Source: Eunapius fragilis
Lineage: Eukaryota; Porifera; Demospongiae; Spongillida; Spongillidae
Direction: 5' to 3'
DNA length: 64,000 nt
Assembly (NCBI GenBank): GCA_963681505.1
Contig: OY811971.1
Coordinates: 17,438,234 to 17,502,233, forward strand
This document shows positions 11,585 to 42,014 of this stretch, one piece after another. The notes beneath the pieces were generated by a model. That model was not told where the DNA came from, did not search any database, and saw only the letters and a program-made list of their open reading frames with translations. How positions within the stretch are numbered: position 1 is the stretch's first letter; every line of letters starts with the position of its first letter. The position numbers were made by a program, and so were the translations under genes.

Positions 11585-12812
11585 ATGGACTGGAGGCAAC
11601 CGATGGGTAACGAATGTTTCCTTCTGCAGACTGTAGTTGTACAAGTGGCTAGTTGTTGCCAGGTTTTGTTCAATTAGGTCAAAACAATTACATGTACATG
11701 TGATAGTGTCAGGTACTTACGTATATGGTGGTTTTGGCTTTCATTTCAAGCTGCATAATGAATGATAAAGTTGATAGTAATGCACAGGCATCATGCTTAA
11801 AATGATACCTTGAATTTTCATCAGGAGGCTTCCTCGCAAATCACTGCTCCATTCAGTTTCTCAACCGTTTGGCAAAATGGTCGGACATGTACACATGGAG
11901 CCGTATGGAATGGACTCTAAAATCATAAATAGGGCCTCAGATGTTCTTAGATTCAGTACTTACCTCTGGTTCCACAGCATGCAGAAAAAGAATTTGAATC
12001 ACACCCACGACACGTGATTATTATTTTATTTATTGCATTTGAAAATAGCTAGCTGATGTAATTGGGTATTTTTAACTGAATACCAAATAAGGTACTATTC
12101 GCTTTAGTTATTTGCCCTAACAGTTAGGCGTCTAATAGACACCTGAAGATAACTTGTGGACGCAGCCTGAAGCAATTCGTACACTTGGCGTGCTTTAAAA
12201 ACGTTCCTGTTGTGAGTTATGCTATCCCGAAGGAAAAAGAAGAGGACGACGACGACGGAGAAAGTTTAGGTGGGACTGGGTACGGACAATGGGGGTGAGT
12301 ATTTTTGTTATCTAAAAGCACAGTCTTATGACACAGAAGCAACGCAGAACTGTTCTCCATTTTGATATCGCTCGATTGCCACTAAGAGTGTGAAGTGGCC
12401 TGACTCTTGGCTGTCCCACTCGATGCTAGTGATGTTTTTTAATGACATTCATCATACTGCAGGATTCCAATATGGAATCTACTTGCGTAGGTTCCGATTT
12501 ATTTTCAGAGCCCTTCACTTATCACCTAAATAAGAATTGATTTTTAAATTTATAATTTTTTATTTTAACACCGGATCCGTGAAAATTGAATACGTTTTCT
12601 GTCGAACCCAACTTTAGGAAAATTAGTCGGAAAAGCGACAATTGATGGGAATTTAAGTACTTTTTAAACTATCGCAGAAATGTGTGTCGTTATTCCTAGT
12701 CTCGTATGTCGAGTGTTGGCTAAACTGAATGCACTCATAGTGATGCGGTTTGCTGATTTTTAGGTCCTCGAGCATAGCCGAGTACACTTTTTTCTAGAAC
12801 TGTCTATATAGC
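11585..12812. other. Intronic DNA without a recognised gene
   Basis: Mostly A/T-rich. Near 12225-12294 a lysine/arginine- or aspartate-rich short open stretch ends at a gtgagt donor. Its frame is ambiguous, and it may be the first exon of the transposase-like gene that follows. Nothing else recognised. Confidence 0.4.
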
Positions 12813-14690: not shown

Positions 14691-14986
14691 CTCCATTCCG
14701 CTCCACACACATACCTTCAGTATCGGAATTGTATGCAACCCAGTACATCACATCTGCAGGTAAACAGCAGATGACAAGGTACTATAGCCTTGACCAAAAG
14801 GTACCACCTGTAGTTGTGTCCATTCCTCTGTGCCATGCTGCATTACTTATTGCCACAGTGGGTGAGGAGGAGGGCATTAATTTTACAGGTGTTAGTCTCA
14901 TCAAAATTGATCCTGGACTTCCAGGCCTTCCTTGCTTACAACCACCAGATACCAAGGCCTTGGGCTTTGTTCCTATGCTTTGGTAT

Positions 14987-15321
14987 TGTTATGGACCCGC
15001 TTCGCCACCGCTTAGCTCGCACACCCCAACGATACGATTAACGGCAAATCTTTATATCTTTAAGAATACATGCACGCACATCACATGTAATCTACGCAAG
15101 CTAAAGCTTTCACTGCTTATTCACTCTCTGCTTCTACAACACTTTTCTCTCCTTTTATATATTCTGGTGCTACCCAGATACAGGGTTCACTGTCACCCTT
15201 TCACTGTATGGCACCCCTTTCATCCGTCCACACTCTTTAGACTCAACCTCCTGGCACCTATTCATCGGGTCATGCTCTGTAGACTCTCCCTTCTCTTCCT
15301 GGTCACCTTCGCTCCGTGACA
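14987..15321 (-). repeat. 3' LTR (335 bp)
   Basis: Begins tgttatggac and ends ctccgtgaca on the plus strand. It differs from the other LTR by about five substitutions and a 2-bp indel (roughly 98% identity), so the insertion is fairly young. Confidence 0.95.
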
Positions 15322-15680
15322 CTCCACCACCCTTCTCCAGCGACACACCTGTCGCTCCAGCACTAAACGCTCTGGACAAAGCATCCGCATTGGCGTTAGC
15401 CTTTCCTTTTCGATATTGCACGGTGAACTGGAATGGCTGCAGTGCAAGACTTCATCGCATCAGTCTATTATTGGTATCCTTTAGTCGATCAAGCCACTCC
15501 AATGACCTGTGATCCGTCTGGATAGTAAATGGTCTTCTTAACAGGTACACCCTGAACACTGCCAACCGTATCGCCAGGCACTCCTTTTCCACAACTGAGT
15601 ATTTCTCTTCTCTAGGCAATAGCTTCCGGCTGAAATACGCCACTGATCCTCTTCTTTTTCCTCTTGTCATGCATGTTGAC
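15322..15680 (-). pseudogene. pol: RNase H remnant downstream of integrase
   Basis: A frame change right after the integrase tail opens YFSRKLLPREEKYSVVEKE (catalytic Glu), then FTIQTDHRSLEWL (catalytic Asp), then YRKGKANANADALSR, the typical end of gypsy-type RNase H. The first RNase H acid and all of reverse transcriptase are missing. An in-frame TGA near 15452 interrupts it. It runs to the purine tract and 3' LTR. Confidence 0.85.
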
Positions 15681-17375
15681 TTCATAGGTGACTGGAGTAA
15701 CCTTTTTGGTAATACCATACGGACCCTGCCAACTCGCCATCAATTTGCTAGTACTTGTCGGTAGTAATACCAGCACCTGGTCTCCATCTTTGAACTCACA
15801 CTCTCTTGCATTTTGGTCGTACCACTGCTTCTGCTCAGCTTGAGCCTGCGCCAGGTTCTCCTTCACGAGTTCAGACATTTTCGACAACCTCTCCTGCACG
15901 CTCAACACATACGATACTATGCTCTCGTCACTTCCTTGCCTAGGTGCTTCCCACGTCTCCTTCAGGATATCGAGCGGTCCTCTCACTTGCCTTCCATACA
16001 CCAGTTCAAACGGTGAAAATCCTGTGGATGCTTGAGGTACATCTCGATACGCGAACAGCACATACGGTAGCCACTTATCCCAATCTTGACCCTCAGCGGT
16101 CGCAACTTTTCTCAGCATGGCCTTCGGCGTTCCATTGAAACGCTCGACCAACCCATCCGTTTGAGGGTGATATGGGCTGGTCCTGATTGGCCTCACATGT
16201 AAGAGTCGATACAGCTCCTCCAGTAGTCTGGATGTAAAATTCGACCCTTGGTCCGTCAGAATCTCTCTCGGGACCCCAACTCTGGCGAACAATGGAATCA
16301 GTTCTTCGGCCACATGTTCCGCATCTATTGATTTTAATGCCACAGCCTCTGGGTACCTCGTAGCATAGTCACAGACGACTAGGACATACTTGTTTCCCGA
16401 CTAGCTCCTCGGAAGAGGTCCAACTATGTCCATCGCGATCCTTCCAAATGGCTCTTCTATAATCGGTAGGGGCATAAGGGGAGCGTATCGTTTTCTCCCC
16501 TTGGAACACTTCTGGCATATCGCACAGCACTTACACCACTCTGCCACATCACGATAAACTGACAGCCAGTAGAACCGCTGTAGTACTCGCTGCACCGTCT
16601 GTTTCTTTCCCATATGTCCAGCCAACGGGATTTCGTGAGCCACCGTCATGACCGTTCTTCGAACTAGAACCGGCAACACCAATTGCTCAATTGCCAGGCC
16701 TTCTCCTTCCACAAGTGGCTGCCAATGTCGATACAGCATCCCGTTCTCTTCATAGAACCACACATTCCCCTCCGTGCGCTCTCCTTTTGCCGCTTTCCAC
16801 AATGGCTGCAAAGTAGGGTCTTCACGCTGCAATCTCTGGATCTCTTCCACATTGAACAACTTCTTCCCCTCTGCATCGAGGTGTTCAGGCTTCTCTGGTG
16901 CCTTCAAGCCTTCCGCTTTATGTTGCACTGCCGCGTTGTCCAAACTATTCTTTAACTGCACTCTGCTTTCCATTGCAACGTTGCTATCCACCTGTTCCAC
17001 CACAGGAGTGGCCTTTGCCCCACTCTGCTTCTCTTTTTGTTTGGTACGTTCATCTTCTTCCATCCGCTTCTTTGCCTGAGCCCACGTAGTCGTTGCCATC
17101 ACCAAACTCTTCTTGGGACCTTGAACCGTCGGACCGATCTTCACCAGCTCCGGTACATCTCTTCCCAACAGCACTGACATAGGAAGCTTTTTAACAGCTG
17201 CTGCCTCCAACCAGTAGTGCTTCTCGTCCACAATGACCTCGACTCGGGCTAACGGATAAGATACTCTATCCCCGTGTACGCACTCCACCATTATGTTCCT
17301 TCCCAACAGTCTCTTCCTGGGTACCAGACACGCCCGCACCAGCGTTCTCAGTATCCAAAACGATATCCGAGACAT
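15665..17375 (-). pseudogene. pol: Protease-integrase region of the LTR element
   Basis: The protease part is damaged: the catalytic Asp-Thr is followed by a disruption and frame change near 17350, while the later LLGRDVPELV block survives. The integrase follows directly, with no reverse transcriptase in between. It has an H-x-H zinc module (AHEIPLAGHMGKKQ, then CKCCAICQKC) and a DDE core: Asp in VCDYATRYP, Asp in LTDQGSNF and Glu in GLVERFNGT, all present. A GPY/F-type tail (WQGPYGITKKVTP) closes it. One in-frame TAG near 16401 splits it. The frame ends near 15665 at the junction with RNase H. Confidence 0.85.
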
Positions 17376-17452
17376 CCGTTCCCTCTACCTTTCCGCTCCT
17401 CACAGGAACCAAGGTATCTCCATTTTCTGTCCTTCGGAACTTCTGACCACGT

Positions 17453-18457
17453 CCTCCATAGTAGCTCCCTCGACTGGGACACTTACTCGAGATATGCCCA
17501 AACTGATGGCATGAATAACACCTCGGACCCCTACCCGGACCCTCTCTGCTCTGGCCTCCTTAGTACAGGTGTATCTCTCGGAGCTTTTTCGCTTTCTTGC
17601 AAGGTATCCACTTCACCACCTTGCCTCTGTTTGACCGGGATGCCTTCCTTTCGTCTAGCCTGTTCGTACAAATCCAACTCTCCCGCCTTCACACACCCCT
17701 TTGGCTTCCGCTCCAGTAGCCACAGCCGCTTCTCCATCGGGAGACTGTTCACTAATTGTTCGATACCGAACTCTTGCTGAATATCCTCTACGGTCTTATA
17801 CTCCCGCAGCCACTTTGCCAGTAGATCCATCAATCATACGCAGAACTCGCGATATGTCTCCCCTACTTTCCGTGCTGCTTTCCGAAAGTAATTGCGGTAC
17901 GCCTACTCGTTCAGATCGTAACGCATCAAGATCGCCGCTTTGATTGCATCATAGTTCGACGAGTCCATGATCGATAATTCCACAAAGGCTAACTGCGCCC
18001 TTCCGCTCAGCTGTGGAGCCAGATAATGCAGCCATCGACCTTGGACGATTTTGTGTGCCGCCATTATACGTTCGAAGGTCGCTAGATACGCTTCGATGTC
18101 GTCGCTATCCCGCAGGGCCACTAATTTGATTCCCAACTCCGCAGGAGTCCACTCTCCTGCTGCGAGGACGGACCGTTCGACCATCTTCGCCAGTTGCTCC
18201 ATTTGGTTCCTCATTGCCTCTCTCTCTTCACCGCGACTTTGGCGTTCTTCTTCTAACCTTTTCGACATTGCCGACTCTCTTGCGACGTTCTCTTCGTCTC
18301 TGCGCCGCCTTTCTTCTACAATTTCGGCTTCCCACCGCACTCGCACGCCTTCTATCTCTTCTTCGCATCTCTTTCTGTCTTCCGCCAAACCCTGCAACAT
18401 CTCTTGCCAGTTAACTTCTGCCATCGTCTTGTATGCACGTCCTGACCGAGTGGTCAT
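17453..18457 (-). pseudogene. gag: Gag of the LTR element (broken)
   Basis: Starts at ATG 18457 (MTTRSGRAYK). A long charged coiled-coil-like stretch (about residues 20-95, rich in E/R) leads to a capsid-like region (IEAYLATFERIMAAHKI). Two in-frame stops (near 17903 and 17834) interrupt it; the downstream segment has a SCAN-like look (FGIEQLVNSLP). After a frame change near 17531 comes a CCHC zinc knuckle (CYSCHQFGHISSKC, about 17479-17520), which binds RNA in functional gag. Not translatable as one protein. Confidence 0.8.
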
Positions 18458-18502
18458 ACAGCTTTATGCGCAGTTGATCTCACAACCATCAGACGAACAG
18501 AT

Positions 18503-18518
18503 CCCACCGCTGCCACCA
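18503..18518 (-). promoter_or_regulatory. Primer-binding site complementary to tRNA-Leu 3' end
   Basis: Three bases inside the 5' LTR, the minus strand reads TGGTGGCAGCGGTGGG. This is the exact complement of CCCACCGCTGCCA plus CCA, the 3' end of a common animal tRNA-Leu. It would prime minus-strand DNA synthesis. Confidence 0.75.
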
Positions 18519-18521
18519 AAT

Positions 18522-18854
18522 TGTTATGGACCCGCTTCGCCACCGCTTAGCTCGCACACCCCAACGATACGATTAACGGCAAATCTTTATCTTTAAGAAT
18601 ACATGCATGCACATCGCATGTAATCTACACAAGCTAAAGCCTTCACTGCTTATTCACTCTCTGCTTCTACAACACTTTTCTCTCCTTTTATATATTCTGG
18701 TGCTACCCAGATACAGGGTTCACTGTCACCCTTTCACTGTATGGCACCCCTTTCATCCATCCACACTCTTTAGACTCAACCTCCTGGCACCTATTCATCG
18801 GGTCATGCTCTGTAGACTCTCCCTTCTCTTCCTGGTCACCTTCGCTCCGTGACA
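18522..18854 (-). repeat. 5' LTR (333 bp)
   Basis: Paired with 14987-15321. Same TG..CA termini, followed directly by the second ggtat target copy. It would hold the promoter for the minus-strand transcript. Confidence 0.95.
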
Positions 18855-19399
18855 GGTATACACCACGGATCTTCCCATCAAGTGGCTGCTCACTCAAGTG
18901 AATTATCTTCTGTGACTGCATCTCCTTCAGCCTGGTAAACACACCATCGGCAGATATCTTCACCTTGCCTGAATCTTTGCATTCCCCAGCCTTTCAGTAC
19001 TCATTGATGATACGTGTTACTGTAGAGGTCAGCTCAGGGTGCATATTCTTACTGGTGTGTGAGCCCAACCAGAATAGTTGGTTTCAAATGTTGCATATGC
19101 ATGGAATCTCACCACCATCATCCACAAATATGTCCGATGCACATGCTATAGCAGCACCATCAACAGACAGGTTCATCTTGGACAGCTTCTGAAGCTCATT
19201 AGCATGCGTCATTGCGATGCTCAGGACATCCTGAGGCTCTCTTACGCCGTCACACTTGTGCATGTCCAGCAACGTCTGAGACTTGAAGTGATAGTGGCAA
19301 TCAGCACACTGTGGATAAACTGCTTGTATGGTCTTCATAGCCTCCTCATCCACATGTACATTGTAGATTTTGTACTCTTAACTCCTCTCTCTGGCTGAT

Positions 19400-20550
19400 A
19401 CCTTCCTGTATCTCCTCTTTTCCTTTCTTACTTGCACACATGTATCTTGGCTGTCACTGTTTAACATCACACTGAGGTGTCAAATGACCTACTGAAGTGG
19501 ACCATACTTAATCCACCACCACATCAAAAAGATTGGCAATAAACCTGAGCTTATCAGGCACATTCAGGAACATATGGCAAACGCTTTGCAATGATTATGT
19601 ATCAGAACATTGTTATTCACATATACATTAACACTGTACGTTCATATCGCACAAGCTTTTTAGCACATGACCAATATTTGGGTCTGGGAACGAGATCAAA
19701 AATGAGTATAGTGTTTGTTTCGAAGGTAGGACGATATTTTAATGCCAAAATCTTTTTACGGTTCTTGTGAACATCTCCCCCCCCCCCCCCCCTCCCCTCG
19801 CACATATATTTATACGGTACAGATATTCAATTAAATTTTATTATCACCTTATTCACACCTCAATGACATAATACATTCTGCATCTGTATTACATTATACA
19901 TCTCAAACAGGGTACTGTTCTGTTATATATTGTGTACGATGGGCAAATACAGACGGTCCGTCAAACAATCTTCAGCTGTACTTCATTTTCCCCCCACCCC
20001 CCCTGATTTTGTAATTTGTAAACTTACCATTCATACCGCTGAACCTAAGCTAAACTAAGCCCAGCTAGATGGGCGTACCCTAAACTAAGCCCATCTAGAC
20101 GGGGGAACAGTTGGCTGATCCGCTAACAAATCCAGCTAGACGTAGGTCCTTATTGGAAGTAGTTACAAGGCTGGAAATAGCTCTAAACATTGTCTAGAGA
20201 GTTGAACACTAAGTACAACAGTATTTGTTGCAATTAAAACCCTTCCGACTTATTTTCCAAAAAGTGATTCGACAAAATAGGCGAAAAAAGTATTCAATTT
20301 TCACGGACGTGGGGTAAAAACCATATGCAGTAATGTAACGTGTACAGGTTGGCTTGCAGCTATACTTGTGCATGCTGTTAGGTATGAACGCATGTGATCC
20401 CAACATTTAGTTAATTAACCCTCTTTAAATATACTATATTCAAGTCTGTACTTTTCAAATGGATCATTCAAATAAATTCTGTATCATTTAAATTTCCTAC
20501 CCTCATGCACACTGTATGGTTTTCTTGACCCCTCCCCTCCCTGCGTGCAG
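19400..20550. other. End of SLC35B4 intron 9, no gene seen
   Basis: A/T-rich with a poly(C) run near 19777-19792 and a short direct duplication of ctaaactaagcccagctaga near 20050-20100. The last 30 bases are C/T-rich and lead to the exon 10 acceptor. Confidence 0.6.
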
Positions 20551-26681: not shown

Positions 26682-27559
26682 TCAGCTGCTCTTCACGTGT
26701 GAGGCCTTTTCTTCAGAGCTATGTCCCTTACCCTTCCTATCATGACCGCTGACACCCTCAGCGGTGGGGGCGTGGTTCCAGTCAACGGGGTTGAAGAACT
26801 GTTGGGTCTTCCTGTAGGTCCAGTACGGAGTGAGGCACACAAACTGGAGGACTACCTGGGTGTACAGGAGGACAAACACCAACACAGGCATGTTGGCCAC
26901 CACGTTGTCCCACTGGCGGTAGGTCATGACCAGCATGTAACCCTCTATGAGGGTGCGCATGTGGAAGAGGTGGATGAGGAACAGCTGGTTACACTTCCAG
27001 AGGGTGGTGTCGGCCATCTTTGACTTCAGGAGCACCCAACACAGGCAGGAGAAAGGCGTGGTCATTTCCAGCATGACTCCCTGGATGCCAAAGAAGTGTG
27101 CCTTCTCGTAGTAGAGGCACATGGTGCTGCAACCGACGAGACACAACCAGTGGTGAGCGAAGAGGTAAGGGTCGAAGGTTTTAAAGACGACGTCCGAGAG
27201 GGCGAGGGCGACCACCTCGAAGACGAAGAAACCCACGATGACGGAGGCCGTGTGGAGGCTGGTCTGCGTAGCACCGTCCACGACGTTCTCGCTCAGGGCG
27301 GGGTCCATCACCCAGTACCAACCCGACAGCACGATGAAGACGGCTCCGAAGACGGCTCTGACCAGCGACAGGCACCAGAACACCTTTTCTTTGGCTTTCA
27401 GCGTGCGGAAGATGTGGAGGTTGAACGAGGCGAGGTACGCCAGCAGGAAGATGGAGGCTGACGCGGCCGTGGTGCACGCAGCCACAGTAAGCTTGGTCTG
27501 CACATCTCGAGCGTCGACTGCCCTGAGACTTGGGAACAGTCGCAGCAGCGGGTGGTCGC
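26682..27559 (-). CDS. CLN8: CLN8-type TLC-domain protein, copy A
   Basis: About 291 codons form a single open exon. Landmarks of CLN8 (an ER-to-Golgi shuttle for lysosomal enzymes, with a TLC domain) are KAKEKVFW, LVRAVFGAVF, FDPYLFAHHWLCLVG, MLEMTTPFSCLCWVLLK, NQLFLIHLFHMR and TPYWTYRKTQQFFNPVDWN. The order and length match human CLN8 (286 aa). Several hydrophobic segments fit a multi-pass ER membrane protein. The frame continues upstream of 27559 without any ATG, and a consensus-like acceptor (catgcag) lies there, so an upstream start exon is expected but was not found. It ends SEEKASHVKSS with no KKxx signal. Near-identical to copy B in inverse orientation. Confidence 0.9.
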
Positions 27560-28190
27560 CTGCATGTCGCGGTGGTTGCAAATAAGAGCGGGATAAATCA
27601 TAGGGAGGGGCTGATCTCACTTTCCCCAGCAATTCAGGTAAAATTCGTTCTCCCGGCTACCCGCCCGAGTTAGCATGCAAGCACACACTCCACTATCTCA
27701 CCTTCGAATTCCGTCCACTTAACCATTCTGCTTAAAGTCACCTATGACCGAATCACATGACCACTTTTTTTAGTTATTCATCTGGGCTATAATCTGTGAT
27801 TGAGGGTTGATGAATGTCATTAATAATACATCACAAGCGTCTGGAGGGACAACGGAGAAACGGATCGCTTATCTCTTTATCGCGATGGAATGAGAGCGCA
27901 ACAATCTACAGTTCTACGTTGTTTCCGTGTCAAAAAAAACGGTGTGGTTACAGAGAAACAATTTCCTGTTTCTCGTGCCCAGTCCTAAAATAATTCTCCA
28001 TCGTCGTCGTCTTCTTCTTCTTTATAGGAAGGTATAACTCGAGCTTGGAACGGTTTAGAAGGACGGGAATAGTACCAATCGCTTCAAAATTAACCGGCAC
28101 GTTATCCTTACATGTCATAAAGACACATATCAAGTTCTATTTGATAATGTAAATAATAGATTTTATTAATAAGTCTCTATCGCAGTTTAG
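27560..28190. other. Upstream of CLN8 copy A, no gene seen
   Basis: Should contain the promoter and first exon of copy A. No match to the start exon proposed for copy B was found. Unique A/T-rich DNA otherwise. Confidence 0.5.
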
Positions 28191-31610: not shown

Positions 31611-32722
31611 ATGGTAGCGTTGACGGAGCTAGAAGGTAAGGTCCTTTTGTTGCACCCATGGTGCGTACACACCACACACACACGCGCGCGCGCGCGCGCA
31701 CACACACTCACACACGCTCCGCGCCAATTAAGTGCATAGCGAGCAGCTGTGCGATTGCGCCGTGCGGGTTGACTATGTAGCTAAAACGTATTTTATTTGT
31801 GTTCCGCTCTATTTTGCAACCACCGCAACATGCAGGCGACCATCCGCTGCTGCGACTGTTCCCAAGTCTCAGGGCAGTTGACGCTCGAGATGTGCAGACC
31901 AAGCTTACTGTGGCTGCGTGCACCACGGCCGCGTCAGCCTCCATCTTCCTGCTGGCGTACCTCGCCTCGTTCAACCTCCACATCTTCCGCACGCTGAAAG
32001 CCAAAGAAAAGGTGTTCTGGTGCCTGTCGCTGGTCAGAGCCGTGTTCGGAGCCGTCTTCGTCGTGCTGTCGGGTTGGTACTGGGTGATGGACCCCGCCCT
32101 GAGCGAGAACGTCGTGGACGGTGCTACGCAGACCAGCCTCCACACGGCCTCCGTCATCGTGGGTTTCTTCGTCTTCGAGGTGGTCGCCCTCGCCCTCTCG
32201 GACGTCGTCTTTAAAACCTTCGACCCTTACCTCTTCGCTCACCACTGGTTGTGTCTCGTCGGTTGCAGCACCATGTGCCTCTACTACGAGAAGGCACACT
32301 TCTTTGGCATCCAGGGAGTCATGCTGGAAATGACCACGCCTTTCTCCTGCCTGTGTTGGGTGCTCCTGAAGTGCAAGATGGCCGACACCACCCTCTGGAA
32401 GTGCAACCAGCTGTTCCTCATCCACCTCTTCCACATGCGCACCCTCATAGAGGGTTACATGCTGGTCATGACCTACCGCCAGTGGGACAACGTGGTGGCC
32501 AACATGCCTGTGTTGGTGTTTGTCCTCCTGTACACCCAGGTAGTCCTCCAGTTTGTGTGCCTCACTCCGTACTGGACCTACAGGAAGACCCAACAGTTCT
32601 TCAACCCCGTTGACTGGAACCACGCCCCCACCGCTGAGGGTGTCAGCGGTCATGACAGGAAGGGTAAAGGACATAGCCTTGAGGGGAAGAATGGAGTGTC
32701 CCAACACGTGAAGAGTGGCTGA
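31611..32722 (+). CDS. CLN8: CLN8-type TLC-domain protein, copy B
   Basis: Proposed as two exons. 31611-31635 (ATG; MVALTELE plus one base) ends at a gtaagg donor. 31836-32722 starts after a tgcag acceptor in the matching phase. The sum is 303 aa. Exon 2 contains the whole TLC-type membrane domain with the same landmarks as copy A (KAKEKVFW, MLEMTTPFSC, KTQQFFNPVDWN). Protein differences from copy A are few (Val/Ile, Cys/Ser) until the tail, which here ends LEGKNGVSQHVKSG. The exon is G/C-rich with strong C/G at third positions, unlike the A/T-rich surroundings. The small first exon is a prediction; the alternative is an unknown upstream start. Convergent with COMMD7. Confidence 0.9.
31675..31712. 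repeat. CA/CG dinucleotide run in CLN8 copy B intron
   Basis: An alternating purine-pyrimidine block (cacacacacacgcgcgcgcg...) within the proposed 200-bp intron. Such runs can adopt Z-DNA. Confidence 0.8.
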
Positions 32723-39411: not shown

Positions 39412-41458
39412 TTAGAGTTCAGGTATGCCACGCTCCCTATGCCAATCCATGCAGCAAGAGCCTCTATCTGATGACATTCCACATACAGTCACTATTAAAC
39501 CTTCAGGAGGTCGACTGCATGTTGAGCAGAAGTCGTGGCCATTGTTCTGGTCTTTGAACACACGTACACACACCAGGCACTTTCTCCTAGCCCCTCCAGC
39601 ACTGCCCTGCTTTGACTCATACTGGTGTAGTGTGGTCAGGGGCATAAAGAGATGAGCTGTATCTGTAGATGCACTTTCAGATTGTTGTGGTGACCTTAGG
39701 GACCTAGTATGGGGCGACACTGGAACACCATATGTATTGGTAATGAGAGACAGTGACAATCTCTCTGTGAATGTGCGGTGTTCCATGCTTTTACCATCTA
39801 AATGAAGGGCTGAATACAATAGGAAGGCATCCACCTCCACCATTCCCAAAATGCTTGCAAAGACACGGTGATGCCATTTCCAATTGCCCCCCCCAAGCTT
39901 CCTCAAGTGCCAGTGAACCCTGGCGAAGGTGGTTATGTACATCAATCTTGTTAGCACTATCAAAGTATTCTTCTACTAGCTTCGGTCTTTTCACAGTCTT
40001 GTATAATATCTCTGATGACTCTCCATCTTCAGACACACGGTGTCTTTTCTTCGTGTGTGGCTGGCTTTCCACTGTTGTCCCACATGTTCACAAGAACCTT
40101 TTTAGTGTCTTATCTTTCCAGCCCAGTGCAATCATTGGGACACCTTCAATTGTTGCAGTTGCAGCATGGTGGTCACCCCTCTGGTACTGACAATTGTCCA
40201 AGTACTTTGCAGGGAACTCTTTAGTTGCCCCTTTCACGATGACCTGTAAGAACAAGCCTCTTTTTCCCAGCAATACAGCCGCTGTTGTACTAGTGAATGC
40301 AGAGTCTGCCCTAACTATCCGATGGCTTCCGAAGTAGGGCTCACATAACCGAAGCAACCATGCTGTGCCAGCAGGGAGTGCTGACCAGTCTTTGTCTGCC
40401 ATATCACTTTTCTTTTCTTGTATCTCGAATCTCAGCATGACACCAGTCACACCATCAGCAAGGTTTTTAAACTCTGTGCCAACACCTTTTGGCTTGCGAA
40501 TTATCTTTTGGGTGTGTGGGAGAGCATCTGGCATATCATCTGGCTTTCTACTAATCCAGGATGCAAAAGACTCATCTACAACAAGACAGCTCGAAGGACG
40601 AACCTTATCAAGCCTGCGCTGACTGAAAGTATCAACAAGTGTGCGAACTGGGTGCCACCTGTCACTTTCTTTGAAAGTTGAAGGATCATGAAAAGTCAAA
40701 TGACGGAGAACAGTTTCGAACCTTCTTTGCCCCATACCAAATCAATTTCCCCATGCTGGAGCAGGAAGGAGGCTATCTTCACTGTTTTCAACACTCCAAT
40801 ACTTGCGACGGTCCCCATATGGATGCACAGTCATGCCATACAAAAACCCAAGCACCTTCAGTACCTCCTGCGGTGATGTTTCTGCCTGCCCAGCATCTTT
40901 CAGCACTGTTGATGTCCAAAATGCAAAATCAGCCAGCATATGGGTTGGAAACATCATCAGGAAAAAGTCATACACAGATCTACTGGAAATGTGTGCACCA
41001 TCTCCCCACAGAATCCTCATGCTGTGATGATCTCCATCGAAGTGGTTAGCAGTGATGGCATCAACTGCTGTCCATTGTATTCCATCCACAATGAGCGGAT
41101 TATCGGAAGGGTCGGGTCTTGCTAGAGTATCTTCAATAACGGGGTTCTCTTCAGGAGCATCATCTGAAGACTCATTTTTATCTTCATCGTCGCTCGAACT
41201 GTTCATATCGTCATCTTCAGGCTCGAGATCGTGTGTCTCACGAATGAGACTGCGAGCGTTCAGTAACATATCGATCTCAGGTTTGTCCCACCTTACGCGC
41301 CATTTTGCCGACGGTCCTGCTCCTACCATTTCAGTTACCTTTCCACGCAATTGGACCTTAGATGCCTGTTTCCCAAACTCGGCTGTAGCTTTTCTGGCGC
41401 CAAGAACCTTTGTAGCATTTGCGCACACTCTATCTCCAACACTCAAACCCTTCGCCAT
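39412..41458 (-). pseudogene. piggyBac-type transposase (DDE_Tnp_1_7), broken
   Basis: Length about 680 codons from ATG 41458 (MAKGLSVGDRVC). The N-terminal module contains KWRVRWDKPE and an acidic run (EPEDDDMNSSSDDED), then the transposase core: VVDESFASWISR (first Asp), RIVRADSAFTSTTAA (second Asp), and KRPKLVEEYFDSANKIDVHN. A C-terminal Cys-rich ribbon follows (CLVCVRVF, then FCSTCS). Two in-frame TGA stops (near 40742 and 40088) and one frameshift at a C8 run near 39889 inactivate it. Such enzymes cut and paste at TTAA sites. Confidence 0.85.
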
Positions 41459-42014
41459 TATCGTCACGTACAAGGAACAAAAGAAGCATAGCGCAATGCG
41501 CAGATACACAACCAGTTCTCCACACTTCTGAATCTCACCTGATTTAAAGATCTCGTGCGTTACGGCTGTGATATTACGGACGTAACGGAGGTGATTTCCC
41601 AAAGGGTCCGATTCAGACATTATATGTGCGGTCTGAATCACCTGGATTATTATAACCATTGCTAGTTACTATTAATTTGAACTTAACAAACGATACACGG
41701 CTGGTTTTCACCTCTGAATCGCATGCTTGATCACGTGACCGCGATTGTGTCCGAGAAAGCGAGCCTTTATTGCCCAATCGCCATCGTGTAAGCTTGGATT
41801 CGAGTTCAGAAACAAGTATTTGCGTCATCTGAAGGCGGCTGGTTACGAAGCATACCTGGAGCAAAATAGGCGAAGAAACAAACACAGCCGTGTTAGTGCC
41901 TCCACATGTACAGATTGTGGTTCAACCTCCTTTTGCCACACAGGGTGAATCCTGCTCTAGTAAGTAGCAGTGTAATGAGATTTTGGACACATTTTTTTGC
42001 GAATTTATAGGCCT

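What the first reader, a model, noticed from the sequence alone, without database searches (positions are those of the whole stretch)
15322..18521. Gypsy-type retroelement with protease-integrase-RNase H order and no reverse transcriptase
Directly seen: integrase motifs (zinc module, DDE core, GPY/F-like tail) lie upstream of RNase H, and nothing resembling reverse transcriptase is present. Gmr1-like elements are the known gypsy group with integrase before RT-RH. This copy fits that order with RT and the start of RNase H deleted exactly between the integrase tail and RNase H.
Basis: partly seen in the sequence, partly recalled or inferred. Interest (0 to 1): 0.75.

Follow-up and report, generated by a model that had tools for sequence, protein, structure and literature searches.

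The report
Sponge jumping gene missing reverse transcriptase
This is one broken copy of a known but unusual kind of retrotransposon (Gmr1-like, with integrase ahead of reverse transcriptase) in what is probably a freshwater-sponge genome; a 1.2 kb internal deletion removed its reverse transcriptase, while relatives elsewhere in the genome keep it in the same unusual order.

Summary
On the minus strand, an LTR element (14987-18854; LTRs 98.5% identical; 5-bp target duplication GGTAT) encodes a SCAN-like capsid, zinc knuckle, integrase and a truncated RNase H, with no reverse transcriptase. Relatives in the same genome read INT-RT-RH, and the closest carries 1,226 bp at window 15645/15644 that this copy lacks: integrase end, linker, RT and the start of RNase H. 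A genome search with an INT-RT piece scored 62 places: 61 run from INT into RT, and the window copy alone stops at INT. A SCAN capsid, a published Gmr1 marker, lies upstream of 56 of 62 INT-first places but 1 of 149 other listed RT places. Ten RT-RH-INT loci form a separate clade in the RT tree, seven in the INT tree. So this is a dead, internally deleted Gmr1-like Ty3/gypsy copy, not a new architecture. The order is published. The likely sponge host, inferred only, modestly extends what I found described. No published Gmr1 sequence was available for the trees.

The parts
18855..18859 (.). target-site duplication GGTAT (ATACC in element sense), 5' side
18522..18854 (-). 5' LTR, TG...CA ends
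18500..18518 (-). primer-binding-site-like stretch TGGTGGCAGCGGTGGGATC; resemblance to a tRNA-Leu 3' end is recalled and was not confirmed
   Evidence: sequence; tRNA not found
17531..18463 (-). gag: N-terminal part and capsid, interrupted by stops and frame changes
17675..17902 (-). SCAN-like capsid domain
   Evidence: 38.9 bits, over cut-off 27, with one stop inside; open piece alone 6.4e-05, 23.1 bits, below cut-off
17473..17523 (-). nucleocapsid CCHC zinc knuckle
   Evidence: zf-CCHC 0.0016, 18.9 bits, below cut-off 20.8
17145..17384 (-). putative protease region (motif only)
   Evidence: no Pfam call in window; same-order homologue P0022 has gag-asp_proteas between SCAN and H2C2
16503..16667 (-). 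integrase zinc-binding H2C2 module
   Evidence: PF17921 2.9e-16
15645..16400 (-). integrase DDE core and GPY/F-like C-terminal module, end clipped by the deletion; a stop separates it from the H2C2 piece
   Evidence: PF00665 1.8e-10, PF22938 8.5e-07
15644..15645 (-). deletion junction: 1,226 bp present in the closest relative (integrase end, linker, RT, start of RNase H) is absent; 1-nt overlap at the joint, inside an imperfect 11-bp repeat GAGGATCWTCC
15339..15644 (-). truncated RNase H and C-terminal tail
   Evidence: PF17917 4.9e-18, profile 28-97 of 105
15322..15338 (-). polypurine-tract-like stretch
   Evidence: sequence
14987..15321 (-). 3' LTR
14982..14986 (.). target-site duplication GGTAT, 3' side

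Best explanation
A decayed, internally deleted copy of a Gmr1-like Ty3/gypsy LTR retrotransposon in an animal (probably freshwater sponge) genome. Its ancestors carried gag (SCAN-type capsid and zinc knuckle), protease (inferred), integrase, reverse transcriptase and RNase H in that order (shown by relatives), and integrated with a 5-bp target duplication (shown). That they replicated through an RNA copy follows from established knowledge of LTR retrotransposons. A single 1,226-bp deletion relative to the closest relative fused the integrase tail to the middle of RNase H out of frame (shown). It most likely arose by a template jump during reverse transcription or a short-repeat deletion at GAGGATCWTCC (inferred; the two are not separable here). 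The copy cannot make RT and is probably inert.
For: Domain order in the window. Relatives on C3, C5, C4 and C9 read INT-RT-RH. All 61 other scored places, the query's own included, run from INT into RT. Gap size and junction. 5-bp duplications at this copy, at the C3 and C5 relatives and at three isolated LTRs. SCAN capsid upstream of 56 of 62 INT-first places against 1 of 149 other listed RT places. RT and INT trees each separate INT-first from RT-RH-INT rows with 100/100 support. 119 of the 120 listed database homologues have INT before RT, the other RT only. Two paralogous repeat copies show the empty site.
Against: No named Gmr1 reference sequence was in the trees. The protease was not called by Pfam in this copy. 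The homologue and genome searches used a collinear INT-RT query, so they favour that order. Hit lists are capped (62 scored of 5,786 candidates; 120 of 2,502 listed). At the C4 relative no clear target duplication was seen, and one isolated LTR (L041) matches at 4 of 5 bases.
Confidence: 0.95

Rival explanations
1. An ordinary RT-RH-INT gypsy element whose domains were rearranged by recombination or misassembly, giving only the appearance of INT before RNase H.
For: The locus does carry an inversion of about 4.6 kb (14897-19473) relative to paralogous flanking repeats, so rearrangement happened nearby.
Against: The inverted block takes in the whole element, LTRs included, and does not reorder its inside. 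Relatives on other contigs have the same inner order, and the trees keep this family apart from the ordinary elements.
Confidence: 0.01
2. A selected non-autonomous derivative that spreads using RT from intact relatives.
For: It keeps both LTRs, PBS-like and PPT-like stretches and a clean target duplication, and relatives with long open frames exist in the genome.
Against: No second copy with this junction among the 46 matches listed in the genome search (40 of 149 candidates scored). Gag and integrase also carry stops.
Confidence: 0.03
3. A Ty1/copia element, which also has INT before RT.
For: Same domain order.
Against: The integrase tail and RNase H match gypsy-type Pfam families (Integrase_p58_C, RT_RNaseH). 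The C5 relative's RT is 50-52% identical to RTs of RT-RH-INT elements of this genome, a C4 relative's RT piece matches RVT_1, and gag has a SCAN-type capsid.
Confidence: 0.01

Closest known systems
Gmr1-like clade of Ty3/gypsy LTR retrotransposons (Goodwin and Poulter 2002, seen only as a cited reference; cod Gmr1)
   Same: Integrase upstream of RT-RNase H in a gypsy-type element; SCAN-type capsid as reported for Gmr elements.
   Different: This copy lacks RT and part of RNase H by deletion. The host is probably a sponge; the passages I read named fish, frogs, lizards, a tunicate, crustaceans and an annelid.
RT-RH-INT Ty3/gypsy elements of the same genome
   Same: Related RT, RNase H and integrase domains (RT 50-52% identical to the C5 relative's).
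   Different: RT-RH-INT order where checked; a SCAN match upstream in 1 of 149 other listed RT places; separate clade in both trees.
Ty1/copia
   Same: INT before RT.
   Different: Gypsy-type domains and a SCAN-type capsid here.

Membership tests
Gmr1-like Ty3/gypsy | integrase upstream of RT and RNase H | tested here: met
   In the window for INT and RNase H; in relatives for INT-RT-RH
Gmr1-like Ty3/gypsy | RT present | tested here: not met
   Absent in this copy through a 1,226-bp deletion; present in relatives of the same family, so membership is claimed for the family and for this copy only as its deleted derivative
Gmr1-like Ty3/gypsy | SCAN-type capsid (reported for Gmr elements, PMC4131045 and PMC4592553, passages) | tested here: met
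   Window 38.9 bits with one stop inside, open piece alone 23.1 bits, below cut-off 27; C5 relative 42.8 bits; PEG3 SCAN structure E 0.0017 and ZNF24 E 0.043, both weak
Gmr1-like Ty3/gypsy | RT/INT phylogeny inside the published Gmr1 clade | tested here: inconclusive
   Groups with INT-first elements, apart from RT-RH-INT ones; no published Gmr1 sequence available
LTR retrotransposon | paired LTRs, PBS, PPT, short target duplication | tested here: met
   LTRs and duplication. PBS and PPT by eye only; primer tRNA not confirmed
LTR retrotransposon | aspartic protease | tested here: inconclusive
   No Pfam call in window; present in same-order homologue P0022

The most novel reading that the evidence does not exclude
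The integrase-first gypsy lineage, already carrying its SCAN-type capsid, is as old as animals: many such elements live in what is probably a sponge, next to ordinary gypsy elements, so both the domain move and the capsid later borrowed by vertebrate SCAN zinc-finger genes predate the sponge/other-animal split. Horizontal transfer is the alternative and was not tested.
Probability: 0.4. Interest if true: 0.45.

Novelty: new member of a known kind. Interest (0 to 1): 0.25.

Why it matters
The copy itself is an ordinary dead transposon. What is useful is its setting: an animal genome, probably a sponge's, with 61 other places of Gmr1 order found in one capped search, 56 of the 62 with a SCAN match upstream, beside RT-RH-INT gypsy elements. 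That gives a place to date the integrase move and the SCAN capsid within animals.

Tried and rejected
Primer tRNA: the PBS-like stretch resembles the 3' end of a tRNA-Leu (recalled). An exact 20-base pattern found nothing. A shorter pattern with one mismatch found 34 places, of which I looked at seven: ARAGORN found no tRNA in the six loci returned nor in L091, and Rfam found none in L078. Not confirmed.

Species name: not determined. The best match of a host CLN8-like protein is Ephydatia muelleri at 74%, and the two retroelement homologues listed with an organism name are also E. muelleri, so a freshwater-sponge relative is inferred.

Dating: LTR K2P 0.0152, but no sponge rate was at hand, so no age is given. 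Whether the deletion preceded or followed insertion could not be settled.

Literature on sponges: 'Gmr1' with 'Porifera' gave 2 papers; their passages that I saw do not report a sponge Gmr1. 'Gmr1' with 'Amphimedon' gave 0. A broader search listed 25 of 803, and a word-start search for 'Gmr1' with 'sponge' listed 20 of 92, none on retroelements by title. Goodwin and Poulter 2002 was seen only in reference lists, and Emerson and Thomas 2011 is not held. So I do not claim that sponge Gmr1-like elements are unpublished.

Full report
What is there. The element lies on the minus strand of the window, 14987-18854, between 5-bp copies of GGTAT (14982-14986 and 18855-18859). Its LTRs begin TG and end CA and differ by 5 transitions over 335 compared sites, plus 2 gap columns (K2P 0.0152). 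A PBS-like stretch follows the 5' LTR and a purine-rich stretch precedes the 3' LTR. The finding's coordinates 15322-18521 are exactly the internal region.

Domains. Open pieces were scanned separately: a SCAN match in gag (6.4e-05, below its cut-off), a CCHC knuckle (0.0016, below cut-off), Integrase_H2C2 (2.9e-16), rve (1.8e-10), Integrase_p58_C (8.5e-07) and RT_RNaseH (4.9e-18). No RT was found. The genome-wide SCAN search scores the window gag at 38.9 bits, over cut-off, with one stop inside. The protease was not called in this copy. Gag and integrase are split by stops and frame changes, so no working set of proteins is expected.

What is missing. The whole-genome search with the internal region shows relatives that match on both sides of one point and carry about 1.1-1.2 kb more there (C3, C5, C4, C9). 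Against the closest relative (C3, 97% over the first 2,875 bases) the window lacks 1,226 bp at 15645/15644. The relative's extra block encodes the end of the integrase, a linker, the RT and the start of RNase H. The joint has 1 nt of overlap and sits in an imperfect 11-bp repeat, GAGGATCTTCC on one side and GAGGATCATCC on the other. The deletion is not a multiple of three. Of the 46 matches listed (40 of 149 candidates scored), none but the window runs through the joint; one on C15 starts 9 bases before it, but that locus keeps RT upstream of its RNase H.

The order of relatives. tblastn with separate H2C2, INT, RT and RNase H pieces over the held loci gives INT-RT-RH in the C3, C5, C4 and C9 relatives and in nine more distant loci (L028 and L030-L037; in L034 no RNase H was reached within the locus), and RT-RH-INT in L001-L008. 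Several further loci of the family hold only RT and RNase H, or RNase H alone, within the stretch fetched (L022, L025, L029, L018, L019). An INT-RT piece of the C5 relative searched against the genome gave 62 scored places of 5,786 candidates. 61, including the query's own place, run from INT into RT; the window copy matches INT only, residues 2-436. 40 of the 62 report open frames of 1,400 or more residues, one of them with a stop inside, so copies with long unbroken frames exist. In the protein database, 119 of the 120 listed homologues (of 2,502 found) have INT before RT and one has RT only. The collinear query favours these results.

Controls. Eight RT loci picked from the PF00078 list (L069-L076) all have RNase H and integrase downstream of RT: L070 within its own stretch and seven in fetched downstream stretches. 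L001 and L005 do too. Of 149 listed PF00078 places that are not INT-first, 31 have a listed rve match 0.5-3.5 kb downstream and 0 have one upstream; the lists hold only the best 150 of each. A SCAN match lies within 6 kb upstream of 56 of 62 INT-first places and of 1 of 149 other listed RT places; that one (C4:3918533) was not examined further and may itself be INT-first. Of the 150 listed SCAN places (193 candidates), 56 have a listed INT-first place within 6 kb downstream; the other 94 were not examined.

Trees. RT: 25 INT-first rows and 10 RT-RH-INT rows separate with 100/100 support. INT: 24 INT-first rows, the window among them, and 7 RT-RH-INT rows separate with 100/100, and the window groups with the C3 and C5 relatives at 100/99; two of the RT-RH-INT rows have long end branches. 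The rows are a chosen subset of the loci and homologues held. The two domains agree, which argues against a recent domain swap. No published Gmr1 sequence was available for either tree.

Comparison with what is known. Passages of PMC3587641, PMC8220671 and PMC6238403 describe Gmr1 elements as gypsy elements with integrase upstream of RT, and a passage of PMC2774666 speaks of the copia-like INT order of the Gmr1 lineage. A passage of PMC4131045 reports the SCAN domain in over half of frog Gmr elements only, and one of PMC4592553 describes SCAN as similar to the C-terminal part of the Gmr1-like capsid. A relative's gag here matches SCAN at 42.8 bits against a cut-off of 27 and the PEG3 and ZNF24 SCAN structures weakly (E 0.0017 and 0.043).

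Host. The genome is 218.9 Mb in 24 contigs. A host CLN8-like protein has its best match in Ephydatia muelleri, 74% over 95%, and two E. muelleri proteins show the INT-RT order. A freshwater sponge is inferred, not shown.

Insertion site. The flanks belong to an older repeat with many copies. Two paralogous copies, L094 and L095, show the two flanks meeting without the element, which is the empty site. Relative to them, window 14897-19473 is inverted as a block that contains the whole element; the inside of the element is not affected.

Verdict. A real, ordinary, dead copy of a known kind. Interest is low to moderate, chiefly because of the likely sponge host and the strong link between integrase-first order and the SCAN capsid.

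Noticed in passing
window 14897-19473: About 4.6 kb, holding the whole element, is inverted relative to two paralogous copies of the flanking repeat (L094, L095).
   Followed up: partly
window 12563-12598 and 20285-20320: A 36-nt inverted repeat pair (83% complementary) brackets the element and its repeated flanks; it may be the ends of an older DNA transposon into which the element inserted, or chance.
   Followed up: no
window 26682-27656 (-) and 31781-32722 (+): Two CLN8-like TLC-domain reading frames, very alike by eye, in opposite orientation.
   Followed up: partly
window 40088-41665 (-): Two adjoining reading frames, the downstream one matching DDE_Tnp_1_7 at 1e-25 (piggyBac-type, recalled); the upstream one had no Pfam match.
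   Followed up: no
G000:C4:5161093-5161572 (L074, L088): A gypsy RT match reported inside an open frame of 6,499 residues, far longer than the other listed frames; RNase H and integrase follow it downstream.
   Followed up: partly
G000:C8:4041939-4042829 and 4045849-4046739: Two pieces of the same family 3.9 kb apart with identical match patterns, with RNase H and part of an LTR but no INT or RT hit within the held flanks; they look like a tandem duplication of one decayed copy.
   Followed up: no
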